A stretch of 43,883 nt of DNA, taken from positions 1 to 43,883 of the forward strand of contig VGLU01000002.1 of assembly GCA_016882195.1 (NCBI GenBank), in the 5' to 3' direction. The DNA comes from Thermoproteota archaeon. Lineage in GTDB: Archaea; Thermoproteota; Methanomethylicia; Methanomethylicales; Methanomethylicaceae. Made by a program: the position numbers and the translations under genes. How positions within the stretch are numbered: position 1 is the first letter of the stretch; each line of letters starts with the position of its first letter. Shown here piece by piece: positions 254 to 28,064 of this stretch. The notes under the pieces are model-generated. The model was not told where the DNA came from, searched no databases, and worked only from the letters and a program-made list of their open reading frames with translations.

Positions 254-1507
254 ATGTTATATTTAGATAGGCAAACAAATGCTTGGGGCCTGTGGAATAA
301 ATTGGGTGGGCAGTCTGTGCTTCGAACATTAGACGACTACTCAGGCTCCACTATAGGCAGGAAGCCAATCATCGGGGATTTCAGTTGGATAACTTCCTCT
401 ACCCCGCTATCAAGCATCAATCTGAACTGGTGCGAGAGAGATTTGCCAGAGAGATTACGCACTAAACACGTCCACAGGCTTCATCCGTACCTCGGTAAAT
501 ATGTTCCGCAGTTAGTCGAGATCTTCCTTAGAAAGTTTGAGCCAAAAACCGTGTGCGATCCTTTTTGTGGGTCTGGCACTACTCTTGTTGAGGCAAACAG
601 CTTGGGAGTAGCCTCAATCGGTTGCGACATTTCCTCATTCAACTGTTTGTTGACTAAGGTCAAGACAGACAAATATGATGTTCAGAAGCTGGAGTTCGAA
701 ATAAAAGATATTCTTTCCAAAGTCGCTGCCGAGATAAATCGAGGAGATATCAAAAAGGAGTTTGTAGAGAAAGAGTCGACCCAATACCTGAAAGATTGGT
801 TTGCCCCCAAAGCACTTTTCCAGTTGTTGTTGTACCGCTCATTTATCAAGAATTATGAGTATGGAGATATTCTGAGGATCATCTTGTCACGGGCCGCTAG
901 ATCAGCTAGGTTGACTACTCACTTCGACTTGGATTTTCCAAAGGAACCTCAGACGAGGCCATATTTTTGCCACAAACACCACAGGATTTGTAGGCCTACA
1001 GATGACGCACTGATATTTCTTTCACGCTACAGCATGGACACTGTCAAGAGAATTAAGGAATTCTCAAAGTTAAGAACAAACGCGCCCGTGACAATAATAT
1101 GCGATGATTCACGAAGCGTTGATTTTCCACCATTCGATGCTGTCGTAACTTCTCCTCCTTACGTAGGACTGATTGATTATCATGAACAACATCGCTATGC
1201 ATATGAGCTACTGGGTTTGCCTCAGAGAAGAGACTTGGAGATTGGTGCCGCGTCTAATGGAAACTCAAAAAAGGCTAGAGATGCGTATATCAAAGGTATT
1301 GGTGAAGTGTTTGCAAATGTACGAAGAAGGATTAGTGATGACGGTGTTGTGGTCATAGTGGTTCATGACAAGCATAACCTATTCTCCGACATGGCCAACA
1401 AGATTGGATTCAGAACAGAGGATGTCTTGACTAGGAGTGTAAATCGTAGAACAGGCAGAAGGGCTGAAGACTTCTTTGAACAAGTCCTAATTTGGAGGGC
1501 TACATGA
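254..1507 (+). CDS. Type II DNA methyltransferase (SPPY motif, probably N4-cytosine)
   Basis: This probable SAM-dependent DNA methyltransferase protects host DNA against the restriction enzyme encoded by the next gene. Visible motifs are the SAM-binding motif I DPFCGSGTT (residues 102-110) and the catalytic motif IV TSPPY (299-303). About 190 residues of variable, probably target-recognition, sequence lie between them. A serine before PPY is typical of N4-cytosine enzymes, so m4C is more likely than m6A; that is inference. The ATG at 254 follows an AT-rich stretch with no clear ribosome site. The last 4 bases overlap the endonuclease start, so the two are cotranscribed. Codon use is more AT-rich than in the downstream housekeeping genes, and the pair sits beside a tRNA gene, which suggests transfer. 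Confidence 0.88.
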   Translation: MLYLDRQTNAWGLWNKLGGQSVLRTLDDYSGSTIGRKPIIGDFSWITSSTPLSSINLNWCERDLPERLRTKHVHRLHPYLGKYVPQLVEIFLRKFEPKTVCDPFCGSGTTLVEANSLGVASIGCDISSFNCLLTKVKTDKYDVQKLEFEIKDILSKVAAEINRGDIKKEFVEKESTQYLKDWFAPKALFQLLLYRSFIKNYEYGDILRIILSRAARSARLTTHFDLDFPKEPQTRPYFCHKHHRICRPTDDALIFLSRYSMDTVKRIKEFSKLRTNAPVTIICDDSRSVDFPPFDAVVTSPPYVGLIDYHEQHRYAYELLGLPQRRDLEIGAASNGNSKKARDAYIKGIGEVFANVRRRISDDGVVVIVVHDKHNLFSDMANKIGFRTEDVLTRSVNRRTGRRAEDFFEQVLIWRAT

Positions 1508-2319
1508 TGATAATGCCTGAGACACGAATGAAAATAAAAGGATACTTGGAGGGTTTCATCCAAGGAATAATTCTGGAGCACAAAGAATCTAGTGATCTCA
1601 AAGCCACTGATTTGCGTCCTACAAAGACTTTGTCACCCGCCGGTGATATCAAACCATTCCACGAGGCTCTGCTCCCTCACGGGATACTGCTCGTAAACGA
1701 ATTCGAACGATCATTCTCAACAAAACTTGGTACGACCTTTGAGGAGTGTGCCAAACTTATTGCACAAGACCGTTTTGCGCAGGCTGAAAGAGGTTACAAA
1801 TTGACAGGAAAAGTTTCTCTCAAAGCATTACGAACCATAGAGAGCATTATCAACGATCTGGGATCCAAGCGGATGAAGAGCTATCCTGAATTAATCCGAA
1901 GGATCCTTGAGTCTTCTGGTGGCAGGTCGGTTGAAAGGACTCGCATAGCAGACCTGTACCTTCGCGATAAGAAAGGCAATGAGATTTTTATGGAGATCAA
2001 AAGCCCTAAGCCTAACAAGGGACAGTGCCTCGAAGTGACGGATAGATTGTTGCAAGTTCATGCCATCAGAAAACAGGGCCCTCCTAAGGTGAGAACCTTC
2101 TACGCGATGGCATACAACCCTTATGGGGAAGAAAAGTCGGCCTACAACCATAGCTTTGCTTTGAACTACCTTGACCTTAGGAATCAAGTCTTGATCGGGA
2201 AGGAATTCTGGGAGCTTGTAGGTGGACCAAGCACATTTGAAGAGGTTCTTGACATCTACAGAGAAGTTGGAAGAGAGAAGGGTTCGGACATGATAGACCA
2301 GCTTGCACTGGGTTACTAG
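1504..2319 (+). CDS. Type II restriction endonuclease, TdeIII-like
   Basis: This is the probable DNA-cleaving partner of the upstream methyltransferase. The region around residues 135-180 resembles the TdeIII family as I remember it, whose reference members cut GGNCC. It includes a PD-(D/E)xK-like active site formed by D150 in RIADLYL and E164-x-K166 in MEIKSPKP. I prefer the ATG at 1504 (271 residues) to the in-frame TTG at 1492, because GGAGG at 1494-1498 sits 5 bases before it and it makes an ATGA overlap with the methyltransferase stop. Function as an endonuclease is inferred from the catalytic motif and the pairing; the GGNCC specificity is uncertain. GGNCC sites are common in the window, for example inside the tRNA-Leu gene, so any cutting depends on protection by the methylase. 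Confidence 0.75.
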   Translation: MMIMPETRMKIKGYLEGFIQGIILEHKESSDLKATDLRPTKTLSPAGDIKPFHEALLPHGILLVNEFERSFSTKLGTTFEECAKLIAQDRFAQAERGYKLTGKVSLKALRTIESIINDLGSKRMKSYPELIRRILESSGGRSVERTRIADLYLRDKKGNEIFMEIKSPKPNKGQCLEVTDRLLQVHAIRKQGPPKVRTFYAMAYNPYGEEKSAYNHSFALNYLDLRNQVLIGKEFWELVGGPSTFEEVLDIYREVGREKGSDMIDQLALGY

Positions 2320-8093: not shown

Positions 8094-8792
8094 CTATACG
8101 CCCCTCAATAGGATCAGGGTAATGAGCGAGGTAAAGGTGATCAGGATATTATCATCAATCGGGTTGAACTCGAAGCGTTCTGCTATCGAGGCCACGAACG
8201 CTGCCGCGACGCCAGCCAGGCTGGCATAATAATACCCTATGGGGATGCAAACAAGAACCATTGCGACGTTGCCTATCCAGTGCTTGGTTCGCCTCTTGAA
8301 TATTGCATTCCTTACGATCCCTGTTACAGCATCCCCAAAGGACATGAAAGCCGCCGGTATCACACCGTAAATTGGATCACCAAAAAGGAACCATGCCAGA
8401 CCAATGGCGGCGCCCCAGGCAATGACGAAGTTGACTTCGTACATGTTCTCCTTTACCTGGAACCAATACAGCAATTTATCCATTCTATGGGGCAGATAAG
8501 TTATGAGCGCAATAACTGAGACCAATATCAGCGGTATTGACACCGCCGTGAAGAATACTGGAAAAAGAAGGGTGATCACACCGCCAGCAAAGATGTGAAT
8601 TATCTTTCTATTGTAGTAAGCGGCTACGTAATGTGATAAGTCTCTGCTCCTCAAGAAGTTATACACGTATTTGGTTCCATAGACGATGCCAAGCACGTAG
8701 ACGAACATGATAATTGCGGTTAGCCCTTCCTGCACGGGGTTTGTATGAATAAGGCTCTCAAAATGGAAGCCTAATGTCAATTTTTCGACCAA
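8094..8792 (-). CDS. Dolichol/phytol kinase-like integral membrane protein (SEC59/VTE5 family)
   Basis: This multi-spanning membrane protein has about seven hydrophobic segments. It resembles the SEC59/DGK1/VTE5 family of CTP-dependent lipid kinases, which phosphorylate dolichol, phytol or diacylglycerol. Family-type features are RKIIHIFAGG near residue 65, FGDAVTGIVRN near 155 and the KHWIGNVAM-like segment near 175, where other members have K-x-x-x-G-S. The start is TTG 8792; no in-frame ATG lies upstream. In archaea a dolichol kinase-like enzyme would supply dolichyl phosphate for protein N-glycosylation. It lies on the same strand as, and one tRNA gene away from, the ribophorin I-like gene. 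Confidence 0.75.
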   Translation of the reverse strand: MVEKLTLGFHFESLIHTNPVQEGLTAIIMFVYVLGIVYGTKYVYNFLRSRDLSHYVAAYYNRKIIHIFAGGVITLLFPVFFTAVSIPLILVSVIALITYLPHRMDKLLYWFQVKENMYEVNFVIAWGAAIGLAWFLFGDPIYGVIPAAFMSFGDAVTGIVRNAIFKRRTKHWIGNVAMVLVCIPIGYYYASLAGVAAAFVASIAERFEFNPIDDNILITFTSLITLILLRGV

Positions 8793-9093: not shown

Positions 9094-10413
9094 TCAACGC
9101 CGCTTACCCTTGGGCGGGATTTTCTTCTTCTTTTCTGAAGGCGGTGAAGGAGCAGGTTTAGTTGGAGATGGAACGACAGGGGATGGAACGACCTCTTTTG
9201 CGCCTTTCTTGAATTTTCTGTAGAGGAGTGCTACGGCTATTACCACCACTACGATGACTATGATCAGAGCAGGACCCATGTAAGAGGCGTATGGTGACGA
9301 GGTGAAGGCCAGACTGAAGGCCTCGTTTGTGTACGGCGTCAGGAAGATGTAGGAGGTGTTTGCAACCAGAGAGCCGCCTTTTTCAGTTATATTACCTCCG
9401 ACCATTTGGGCGTCTGAGCTTCCTGGGGGCATCAGTACTGTCAGGGATACCTGCTTTGCCGGCATATTAAACCACTCAGGCAGAACGTTGCCAGATATGA
9501 CACTCTTTCCGTCCACAATTTGCAGCAGGTTAGACGAAGGGAGGGAGTAGAGCAATGTAAATTCACAATATTCGTTCGGATAGGTCTTTGATCTTATATC
9601 GATCGTGATGGTCTGTCCGGATTGGGTGAACCCCAAATACCCTATGGTATCCATTACCTTCAGATCAGTTGCATCCTTAGGGGCATTTAGTATGACCTTA
9701 GACAATGATGTATAGAGGTCAGAATTCCTTACCTTTATGGTTTCTTCCATCAATATTGCGGATGGAGTGACCTTAATCGTTCTACTGAATGAGTCTGCCT
9801 CGATGAGGGAGTAGTTCCCACTATAATCGACGGCTCCAAACGATGCATTGCCAGGCGTAAGTTGCTTTGAGCCGCTGATGAGTGTTCTCTCACCGGATGT
9901 TGAATTTGAGAGGTAACTTTCATCATAATTGAGCAACTGTGCGCCGAGTGGCAGGTATACAGATGTCGACGCAGAGGAGGAGCTATCAACTATTGGGAAG
10001 AAGTTGACGTAAGTCGTGAAGTTGTCATAATAGTAAGCCATTCCGTGGTAGACCGTCAGTAGTTTGAAGCTGTTGACATCGGTGGTATTTACGTTTACCG
10101 TATAGATTTTGCCTGTCGAGTCCCAGTATGCCCTAGTCTTTAGGGTTTGATTCTGAGGACCATAGGCATACACCGCATAGACGTTCAACGCATCTAGCAG
10201 CTTGAAAGAAACGTTAAAGCTCCCAGTGGGTGGTAGAAGAGAAAACTCGTCAATGTAAACCTGATAGGATGGTTCTAAATAGACGGTTCTAGAGCATACA
10301 GACTCCAAAGGCACGATTACATTGATGTCTTGCGCAAGCTGGCTATTGACGACTTGCATAGAGCATGCTATCAACAGTAAAAGGAACACTCCAGTGATAT
10401 GCGAGTACCGCAA
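9094..10413 (-). CDS. Secreted type I membrane glycoprotein, ribophorin I (OST1)-like
   Basis: The 439-residue protein has a signal peptide (1-24), a large extracellular part, one membrane helix (about 379-398) and a 40-residue cytoplasmic tail rich in K and P. Nine N-x-S/T sequons occur in the outer part (N67, 88, 109, 131, 170, 189, 200, 341, 352). Several segments align with eukaryotic ribophorin I as I remember it: SFSRTIKVTP...LMEETIKVRN (208-230), KVILNAPKDATDLKVMDTIG (239-258), IDIRSKTYPN...LLYSLPS (271-293) and VSLTVLMPPG (322-331). Ribophorin I is a substrate-holding subunit of oligosaccharyltransferase. The start is TTG 10413 with GGTGG upstream. The homology is a judgement by eye; an S-layer-related or unknown exported protein is the alternative. 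Confidence 0.55.
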   Translation of the reverse strand: MRYSHITGVFLLLLIACSMQVVNSQLAQDINVIVPLESVCSRTVYLEPSYQVYIDEFSLLPPTGSFNVSFKLLDALNVYAVYAYGPQNQTLKTRAYWDSTGKIYTVNVNTTDVNSFKLLTVYHGMAYYYDNFTTYVNFFPIVDSSSSASTSVYLPLGAQLLNYDESYLSNSTSGERTLISGSKQLTPGNASFGAVDYSGNYSLIEADSFSRTIKVTPSAILMEETIKVRNSDLYTSLSKVILNAPKDATDLKVMDTIGYLGFTQSGQTITIDIRSKTYPNEYCEFTLLYSLPSSNLLQIVDGKSVISGNVLPEWFNMPAKQVSLTVLMPPGSSDAQMVGGNITEKGGSLVANTSYIFLTPYTNEAFSLAFTSSPYASYMGPALIIVIVVVVIAVALLYRKFKKGAKEVVPSPVVPSPTKPAPSPPSEKKKKIPPKGKRR

Positions 10414-26907: not shown

Positions 26908-27996
26908 ATGGGTAGATTCTGTCCTAAGTGCGGGTCTGAGGGGCACAAGTTCGTACACGGCTTGTGCGAACGCTGCTTCTGGGATGATTCCCTAGAAGAC
27001 TTCCCAAAGGAGTTTAAAGTTCCAATGTGCAACTCCTGCTTCTCCTATCTGCAGGGAAAGAGGTGGATGCGCAAAAGGGAGGACACCCCGGAGGAGAGGG
27101 TTATCGAGGGTGCGAAGGTCGAGCTCATGAGATCCGCGGAACTGCCAGAAGGGGTCGAGTTCGGCGAGATCGAGGGAGAGGTAACCGAGAGAGCCAAGTC
27201 GGGCTTACCGAAGACGGTTCTGCTAACGTCCACCCTTATTGAGGAGGAGAGCGGTATTTCCACGAAGGTCAAGAGCCTTGGAAGCATGGATTACAGGTTG
27301 TGCCAAGACTGCTACAATGTTGCCAGCGGGAAATATGATGCGGTGGTTCAGATAAGGGCGGAGGGAAGGAGGTTAGACGCGGAAGACGGAAGGGCGGTAG
27401 AGAGGGTTTTTGAGAACTTTTATAGAAGGACGGAGGGGCGAGGAAGGCCAGAGGTCTCTGAGGTGAAGGAGCATGAGGGAGGTATTGACGTAAAGTTCGT
27501 CACTTTGAATATGGCAAGGATGTTTGTAAGGGAGCTCGCCGAGACAACGGGCGCTTCGGTGGTGGAGAGCGCAAAGATCATGGGTGCTGACAAAAGAACC
27601 GGCAGCGGTCACTATAGGACGACCATAGCAACAAAGATGCCAAGCTTGAGGGTTGGGGAGCTCATTGAGGTTGATGGTAAAGTCTTTCAAATATCGGGGC
27701 ACCACAGGGGAAGGTTCGTGGTTAAAGATTTTTTAGGGGGAGGCCGGAAGAGGACCCTCTCCGATAGTCAGTTAGCAACATCCAGAAGAATAAGAATGGA
27801 CGAGTGCAGAAGGGTGAGGCTGGAGGCTAAGACGACGCGTTTTGGAACTTTTCTGGATCTAGAGGAGAAGAGATTCCTTGACCTGCCTATTGAGTTCGTC
27901 CCCAAGGATATGGTTGAAGGGGACGTGGGCGTTTTAATATGCGTTAACGGTAACGAGGTCGTATACAAATTAGATGGCGGGCCCGTCGGGATTTGA
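26908..27996 (+). CDS. nmd3: NMD3-like ribosomal 60S/50S subunit factor
   Basis: This archaeal homologue of NMD3 is an adaptor that in eukaryotes escorts the large ribosomal subunit out of the nucleus. In archaea it presumably acts in late large-subunit assembly. The N-terminal zinc region FCPKCGSEGH ... GLCERCFW and a second C-x2-C pair (PMCNSCFSYL ... LCQDCYNVAS) are visible, followed by the beta-rich central domain and an SH3/OB-like C-terminal part. Length (362 residues) is usual for archaea. The last 19 coding bases run into the oppositely oriented tRNA-Lys gene. Confidence 0.93.
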   Translation: MGRFCPKCGSEGHKFVHGLCERCFWDDSLEDFPKEFKVPMCNSCFSYLQGKRWMRKREDTPEERVIEGAKVELMRSAELPEGVEFGEIEGEVTERAKSGLPKTVLLTSTLIEEESGISTKVKSLGSMDYRLCQDCYNVASGKYDAVVQIRAEGRRLDAEDGRAVERVFENFYRRTEGRGRPEVSEVKEHEGGIDVKFVTLNMARMFVRELAETTGASVVESAKIMGADKRTGSGHYRTTIATKMPSLRVGELIEVDGKVFQISGHHRGRFVVKDFLGGGRKRTLSDSQLATSRRIRMDECRRVRLEAKTTRFGTFLDLEEKRFLDLPIEFVPKDMVEGDVGVLICVNGNEVVYKLDGGPVGI

Positions 27997-28064
27997 ACCC
28001 GAGACCAACGGGTATCTTCGATACCTTAAAAGCCCGCTGCTCTACCGTACTGAGCTACGGGCCC
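27975..28064 (-). tRNA. tRNA-Lys (anticodon TTT) with a 13-base intron
   Basis: On the minus strand the acceptor stem is GGGCCCG/CGGGCCC, the discriminator is G (28064 to 27978), and CCA is encoded (27977-27975). The anticodon stem GCGGG/CCCGT and the loop CTTTTA-A give anticodon TTT once a 13-base insertion at 28014-28026 is removed. A TATA-like TTTAAAATTT at 28091-28100 precedes it. The 3' end overlaps the last codons of nmd3, which is transcribed toward it. Confidence 0.93.
28014..28026 (-). other. tRNA-Lys intron at the canonical 37/38 position
   Basis: The 13 bases AGGTATCGAAGAT lie between A37 and A38 of the anticodon loop, the canonical archaeal position. With the flanking exon bases they can form the bulge-helix-bulge substrate of the splicing endonuclease. 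A one-base shift in the boundaries is possible, because the intron and the 3' exon both offer an A. Confidence 0.85.

What the first reader, a model, noticed from the sequence alone, without database searches (positions are those of the whole stretch)
9094..10413. A secreted archaeal protein resembling eukaryotic ribophorin I
The protein has a signal peptide, a glycosylation-site-rich outer part, one membrane helix near the end and a basic tail, the same topology as ribophorin I (OST1). Several segments line up in order with the remembered eukaryotic sequence, including an S-R-x-I-x-V ... E-E-x-I-x-[LV] strand pair and an I-x-I-R ... Y-x-L-P-S segment. Ribophorin-like proteins are reported for Asgard archaea, so one elsewhere would bear on the origin of the oligosaccharyltransferase complex.
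Basis: partly seen in the sequence, partly recalled or inferred. Interest (0 to 1): 0.7.

Follow-up and report, generated by a model that had tools for sequence, protein, structure and literature searches.

The report
Tail-less archaeal ribophorin I (OST1)
A methanogen-lineage archaeon outside the Asgard group carries a real relative of ribophorin I, a part of the enzyme complex that attaches sugars to proteins in our own cells, and its version has lost the inner domain that in other archaea and animals holds the ribosome.

Summary
The ORF at 9094-10413 (-) has a signal peptide, two beta domains rich in glycosylation sequons, one membrane helix and a basic tail, with the quoted motifs. The sequence alone finds nothing in Pfam, NCBIfam or the PDB. 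Its family does: Pfam Ribophorin_I matches 11 of 14 relatives (best 3.4e-9), and an archaeal profile that includes it finds human RPN1 (2.5e-33), Asgard OST1 (1e-17) and yeast OST1 (8.9e-17). An AlphaFold2 model (pLDDT 84.5) matches OST1/RPN1 over its whole length as the eight best PDB hits. The organism belongs to Methanomethylicales; OST1 is widespread in its phylum. That is not wholly new: a 2024 paper states in one sentence that OST1 and OST3/6 occur in TACK archaea. New here is a variant: the whole family has replaced the cytosolic ribosome-binding helical domain with a 21-53 residue Pro/Lys tail (yeast OST1 also lacks that domain), and three sister genera show no OST1 at all. The genome also encodes STT3 and a thioredoxin-less OST3/6-OSTC-like membrane protein. 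Most likely it is an accessory subunit of a small oligosaccharyltransferase on the outer membrane face, not tethered to ribosomes; the complex itself is inferred, not shown.

The parts
9094..10413 (-). OST1/ribophorin I homologue, 439 aa, TTG start
   Evidence: family profile and fold matches to OST1/RPN1
10342..10413 (-). signal peptide (about residues 1-24)
   Evidence: hydrophobic N-terminal helix in the model; aligned in all relatives
9814..10302 (-). outer beta domain 1 (about residues 38-200)
   Evidence: strands E38-E198 of the model; full-length alignment to human and yeast OST1
9298..9804 (-). outer beta domain 2 (about residues 204-372), the part matched by Pfam Ribophorin_I in relatives (profile positions about 250-365)
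9769..9786 (-). SRTIKV motif (residues 210-215), first strand of domain 2; human RPN1 has TRVIEV there
9730..9747 (-). EETIKV motif (residues 223-228); human RPN1 has EENVDL there
9535..9609 (-). ITIDIR ... YSLPS segment (residues 269-293); human RPN1 has MEIRP ... YNLPS
9208..9282 (-). transmembrane helix (about residues 378-402)
9097..9207 (-). short basic, proline-rich cytosolic tail (residues 403-439) in place of the helical cytosolic domain of other archaeal OST1 proteins
   Evidence: no orphan helical domain in the genome

Best explanation
The gene encodes an orthologue of OST1/ribophorin I inherited within the Thermoproteota. It is exported by its signal peptide, stays anchored by one membrane helix, and places two beta domains on the outer face of the cytoplasmic membrane beside the catalytic oligosaccharyltransferase STT3/AglB, where it helps hold acceptor proteins and stabilise the complex, as OST1 does in eukaryotes. 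The cytosolic helical domain, which in human and Asgard OST1 binds ribosomes, was lost at the base of this family, so the complex is probably not held at translating ribosomes; the short basic tail may at most give loose contact with RNA or lipid head groups. Shown here: homology, fold, topology, tail loss, presence of STT3 and of an OST3/6-OSTC-like membrane protein in the same genome. Inferred: assembly into one complex, role in acceptor handling, loss of ribosome tethering.
For: Pfam PF04597 in 11/14 relatives, best 3.4e-9; L007, 30% identical to the window protein, scores 36.7 bits against a cut-off of 25. Profile A1 against all PDB sequences: only yeast OST1 is significant (2.6e-4). Profile A3: human RPN1 2.5e-33 across both domains, membrane helix and cytosolic part, Asgard OST1 domain 8whn 1e-17, yeast OST1 8.9e-17. 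A profile without this family still gives RPN1 2.2e-29, and this family aligns to it over 370 columns at probability 99.9, E 9e-35. Foldseek top eight hits are OST1/RPN1, 2.4e-20 to 1.2e-16. Phylum-wide: PF04597 in 56/398 genomes and 36/163 genera; the broader profile in 239/398, of which about 158 at E <= 1e-20 by my count of the table. Tree: this family plus the sister family form one clade, support 98/97, which fits vertical descent. Cytosolic domain present in the sister family and the other families inspected, absent in all 12 aligned members. Own genome: STT3 2.3e-42; OST3/6 membrane part.
Against: The window sequence alone matches no ribophorin profile, and this family alone reaches yeast OST1 only at E 0.027. 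Whole-chain TM-scores are about 0.5 with rmsd about 9 A, so the relative placing of the two domains is not reproduced. No operon with STT3 in this genome: STT3, the OST3/6-like gene and OST1 lie on different contigs. No interaction or activity data exist. Three genera of the same family have STT3 and the OST3/6-like protein but no detectable OST1, so it is dispensable for the basic reaction.
Confidence: 0.72

Rival explanations
1. It is a true OST1 homologue by descent but no longer works with STT3: freed of the ribosome-binding domain, it serves as a surface glycoprotein or chaperone-like protein on the cell surface.
For: Loss of the cytosolic domain, loss of the whole gene in three sister genera that keep STT3, no gene linkage to STT3 in this genome.
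Against: Yeast OST1 also lacks the domain (its profile match ends at the membrane helix, residue 467 of 476) and is a working OST subunit (established knowledge). Both outer domains keep conserved positions across the family.
Confidence: 0.2
2. It is an unrelated exported two-domain beta protein that shares the M1-aminopeptidase N-domain type of fold, and the likeness to OST1 is convergent.
For: M1 aminopeptidase N-domains and inter-alpha-inhibitor chains also match the model (1.7e-6 and weaker); single-sequence searches are blank.
Against: OST1/RPN1 lead by ten or more orders of magnitude and match the full length, the others only about 190-230 columns. Sequence profiles, which do not use the fold, find OST1 and nothing else of note.
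Confidence: 0.04
3. The gene reached this lineage by transfer from Asgard archaea or eukaryotes, or the contig is contaminated.
For: Ribophorin I was first reported outside eukaryotes in Asgard archaea (PMC10307638). Asgard sequences could not be put in the tree here.
Against: Same neighbours (gcvPA, tRNA-Gln, polyprenol-kinase-like gene, ferritin) in named Methanomethylicales relatives; family plus sister family form one clade and the class is one side of a branch; widespread in the phylum.
Confidence: 0.04

Closest known systems
Yeast OST1 (PDB 6c26, 6ezn, 8agb)
   Same: Two outer beta domains, one membrane helix, no cytosolic helical domain; Foldseek 1.5e-17 to 1.2e-16, profile 8.9e-17
   Different: About 16% identity; the archaeal protein has a basic Pro/Lys tail of about 40 residues; no evidence yet of complex membership
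Human RPN1, ribophorin I (PDB 8pn9, 6s7o, 8b6l)
   Same: Best fold match (2.4e-20) and the matching motif segments
   Different: RPN1 has a cytosolic ribosome-binding four-helix domain (residues 465-607 in PMC11417166); this protein has none
Asgard OST1 of Prometheoarchaeum MK-D1 (607 aa, PDB 8whn for the cytosolic domain; PMC11417166)
   Same: Archaeal OST1; its cytosolic domain matches the one in other Thermoproteota OST1 proteins at 1e-17
   Different: That domain binds ribosomes in vitro (PMC11417166) and is missing here
Other Thermoproteota OST1 proteins, about 540-620 aa (e.g. L046, L018, L024)
   Same: Full-length alignment of the outer part and membrane helix, probability 99.9, E 9e-35
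   Different: They keep the cytosolic helical domain; one other tail-less case was seen (L140)

Membership tests
OST1 / ribophorin I (Pfam PF04597) | Sequence homology to the Ribophorin_I family, judged on the protein family | tested here: met
   11 of 14 relatives match, several over the gathering score; profile with this family finds human, Asgard and yeast OST1. The window sequence alone stays below detection, as a diverged single sequence.
OST1 / ribophorin I (Pfam PF04597) | Two tandem outer beta domains of the OST1 type | tested here: met
   Model pLDDT 84.5; OST1/RPN1 the eight best PDB matches over the whole length
OST1 / ribophorin I (Pfam PF04597) | Signal peptide and a single membrane helix near the C-terminus (type I topology) | tested here: met
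   Helices 4-23 and 379-402 in the model, mean hydropathy 2.93 for the latter; no signal-peptide predictor was available, so cleavage is inferred
OST1 / ribophorin I (Pfam PF04597) | Stable association with STT3 in an oligosaccharyltransferase complex | not testable with these tools
   STT3 and an OST3/6-OSTC-like gene are present in the genome but no interaction data
RPN1-type OST1 with ribosome-binding cytosolic domain (human, Asgard, most Thermoproteota) | Cytosolic helical domain after the membrane helix | tested here: not met
   Tail of 21-53 residues in all 12 members; no orphan domain in the genome. Yeast OST1 lacks it too, so it does not define OST1 as a whole.
M1 aminopeptidase N-domain proteins | Zinc peptidase catalytic domain beside the N-domain | tested here: not met
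   No peptidase domain in the ORF; only about 190-230 columns match and far more weakly

The most novel reading that the evidence does not exclude
A multi-subunit oligosaccharyltransferase of STT3, OST1 and an OSTC/OST3-6-like membrane protein is ancestral to TACK and Asgard archaea together, so the complex did not arise on the way from Asgard archaea to eukaryotes. Within it, the ribosome-binding domain of OST1 is an ancestral part lost at least twice in archaea, in parallel with yeast, and Methanomethylicales show a stepwise series: full OST1, tail-less OST1, no OST1.
Probability: 0.5. Interest if true: 0.68.

Novelty: new variant of a known kind. Interest (0 to 1): 0.55.

Why it matters
Archaea are usually said to glycosylate with a single-subunit enzyme (PMC8993221 says so). 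A broadly distributed OST1 in Thermoproteota, with an OST3/6-OSTC-like partner, means that part of the eukaryotic complex may be older than the Asgard lineage. Natural variants with full, tail-less and absent OST1 inside one order, which has a cultured member (Methanosuratincola petrocarbonis, PMC12244365), would let one ask directly what ribophorin I and its ribosome contact do.

Tried and rejected
Single-sequence Pfam, NCBIfam and PDB searches of the window protein were blank; they do not refute, since relatives at 30-42% identity score. A genome-contig scan with the single sequence found nothing; the alignment scan gave nine named Methanomethylicales relatives. Orphan cytosolic domain as a separate gene: none in the own genome; two weak hits of about 20 bits in 336-346 aa frames of relatives, not pursued. 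Weak broad-profile matches (E above about 1e-20) were not counted as OST1, because the coiled-coil part also matches CdvA. The class-level clade has only 70/84 support and long branches, so it is not claimed as shown. The AlphaFold2 model of the OST3/6-like protein was poor (pLDDT 60), so no fold search was run on it. Alignment A5 held a stray fragment and was replaced by A6; A4 held a dummy row and was not used.

Full report
Observation. The ORF at 9094-10413 (-) encodes 439 residues. The four quoted motif pieces occur in order at residues 210, 223, 269 and 289, and the real human RPN1 sequence printed has matching segments (TRVIEVS, VEENVDL, MEIRP, YNLPS). Sequons are about twice the shuffled expectation in this protein (9 against 4.5, reached by 1.9% of shuffles) and in its relatives.

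Is it ribophorin I? The window sequence alone finds nothing. Relatives were taken from genomes of the same family and beyond. Pfam Ribophorin_I then matches 11 of 14 members of alignment A1, best 3.4e-9; L007, a member of the window's own family, reaches 36.7 bits against a cut-off of 25. A profile of the 14 finds yeast OST1 as the only significant PDB sequence (2.6e-4). A 27-sequence archaeal profile finds human RPN1 at 2.5e-33, the Asgard OST1 cytosolic domain at 1e-17 and yeast OST1 at 8.9e-17. To avoid circularity, 15 archaeal sequences from outside this family were used alone: RPN1 2.2e-29, yeast OST1 1.8e-15, and this family aligns with that profile over 370 columns, probability 99.9, E 9e-35. 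The AlphaFold2 model (pLDDT 84.5, pTM 0.72) has OST1/RPN1 as its eight best PDB matches, E 2.4e-20 to 1.2e-16, over 428-446 columns; the next fold, M1 aminopeptidase N-domain, is at 1.7e-6 over about 195 columns. Whole-chain TM-scores of about 0.5 with rmsd about 9 A say that the two domains are placed differently from the solved complexes, or that the model's hinge is wrong. Sequence and structure agree, so homology is taken as shown.

Where it lives. Nine named relatives are Candidatus Methanomethylicus, Methanosuratincola and other Methanomethylicales, so the window is a Methanomethylicales genome. The surroundings are ordinary archaeal chromosome: glutamine synthetase, nitrilase, ferritin, glycine cleavage P-protein, antiporter-like Mrp/Nuo subunits, tRNA synthetases. 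gcvPA lies next to OST1 in this family, the sister family f2 and family f4; a polyprenol-kinase-like gene, tRNA-Gln and ferritin are near it in several members. Contamination is excluded in practice.

Distribution. PF04597 itself rings in 56 of 398 genomes of the phylum, 36 of 163 genera. The broader profile rings in 239 of 398; matches weaker than about 1e-20 may be coiled-coil chance, leaving about 158 by my count of the table. In the tree this family and its sister family are one clade, 98/97; the class is one side of a branch with 70/84. This fits vertical descent in the phylum, but Asgard and eukaryotic sequences could not be added.

The variant. Most other full-length archaeal members run about 540-620 residues with a cytosolic helical domain after the membrane helix; that domain matches the crystallised Asgard domain 8whn and the RPN1 domain, for which ribosome binding has been shown (PMC11417166). 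All 12 aligned members of the window's family end 21-53 residues after the helix with a Pro-rich, Lys/Arg-rich tail. No separate gene for the domain is found in the own genome. The sister family keeps it (L014), so it was probably lost once on the stem of this family; one further case, L140 in another family, looks like an independent loss. Yeast OST1 lacks it as well: its match ends at residue 467 of 476. Genera g5, g6 and g7 of the same family give no OST1 with either search although their genomes are 80-96% complete; they have STT3, and the OST3/6-like protein in those searched.

Partners. STT3 is present in the own genome, 2.3e-42. A 123-residue membrane protein (G000:C15:18987-19328) is the membrane part of OST3/6 without the thioredoxin domain: Pfam 26.8 bits against 27, relatives 34-36 bits; its family profile finds human MagT1 (1.5e-6) and OSTC (3.6e-4). 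PF04756 matches of the same kind lie beside STT3 in two other genomes, G053 and G060. So this archaeon encodes likely counterparts of three eukaryotic OST subunits, on separate contigs.

How it most likely works. By homology to OST1 (established knowledge of the eukaryotic complex), the outer domains sit beside STT3 at the outer face of the membrane, stabilise the enzyme and help present acceptor proteins. Without the cytosolic domain the complex is probably not held at the ribosome, so glycosylation is likely uncoupled from translation, or coupled in another way. This last part is inference.

Known or new. A 2024 paper states that OST1 and OST3/6 are found in eukaryotes, TACK and Asgard archaea (PMC11417166), so ribophorin I outside Asgard is not a new claim, though Eme et al. 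2023 mention only Asgard archaea (PMC10307638), a 2022 paper says archaea use a single OST subunit while noting the Asgard reports (PMC8993221) and a 2016 HMM survey found no promising prokaryotic candidates (PMC4973528). I found no paper on OST1 in Methanomethylicales or on archaeal forms without the cytosolic domain, within an open-access library only. Hence: a new variant of a known kind.

Noticed in passing
G000:C15:18987-19328 (-), L127:1482-1853: A 123 aa membrane protein equals the membrane part of OST3/6 without thioredoxin, nearest in build to OSTC/DC2; found in every genus of the family that was searched, including those without OST1; PF04756 matches of the same kind lie next to STT3 in G053 and G060.
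   Followed up: partly
window 8094-8792 (-): Multi-pass membrane protein with RKIIHIF ... GDAVTGIVRN ... KRRTKHWIGN ... ERFEFNPIDDN motifs, recalled as the SEC59/VTE5 polyprenol (dolichol) kinase type; no Pfam or NCBIfam match. It neighbours OST1 in several relatives, a possible link to the lipid carrier of N-glycosylation.
   Followed up: partly
genomes G004-G006, G009-G011, G014, G017 (genera g5, g6, g7 of the window's family): No detectable OST1 although STT3 is kept: apparent complete loss.
   Followed up: partly
L140:1438-2856 (-): OST1 of another family that also ends in a short basic tail, an apparent independent loss of the cytosolic domain.
   Followed up: partly
window 27975-28064 (-): ARAGORN reports a tRNA-like gene with a four-base anticodon (ttaa), just before a histidyl-tRNA synthetase-like gene; may be an intron-containing tRNA or a false call.
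   Followed up: no
window 254-2319 (+): DNA methylase next to a TdeIII-type type II restriction endonuclease, apparently a complete restriction-modification pair.
   Followed up: no
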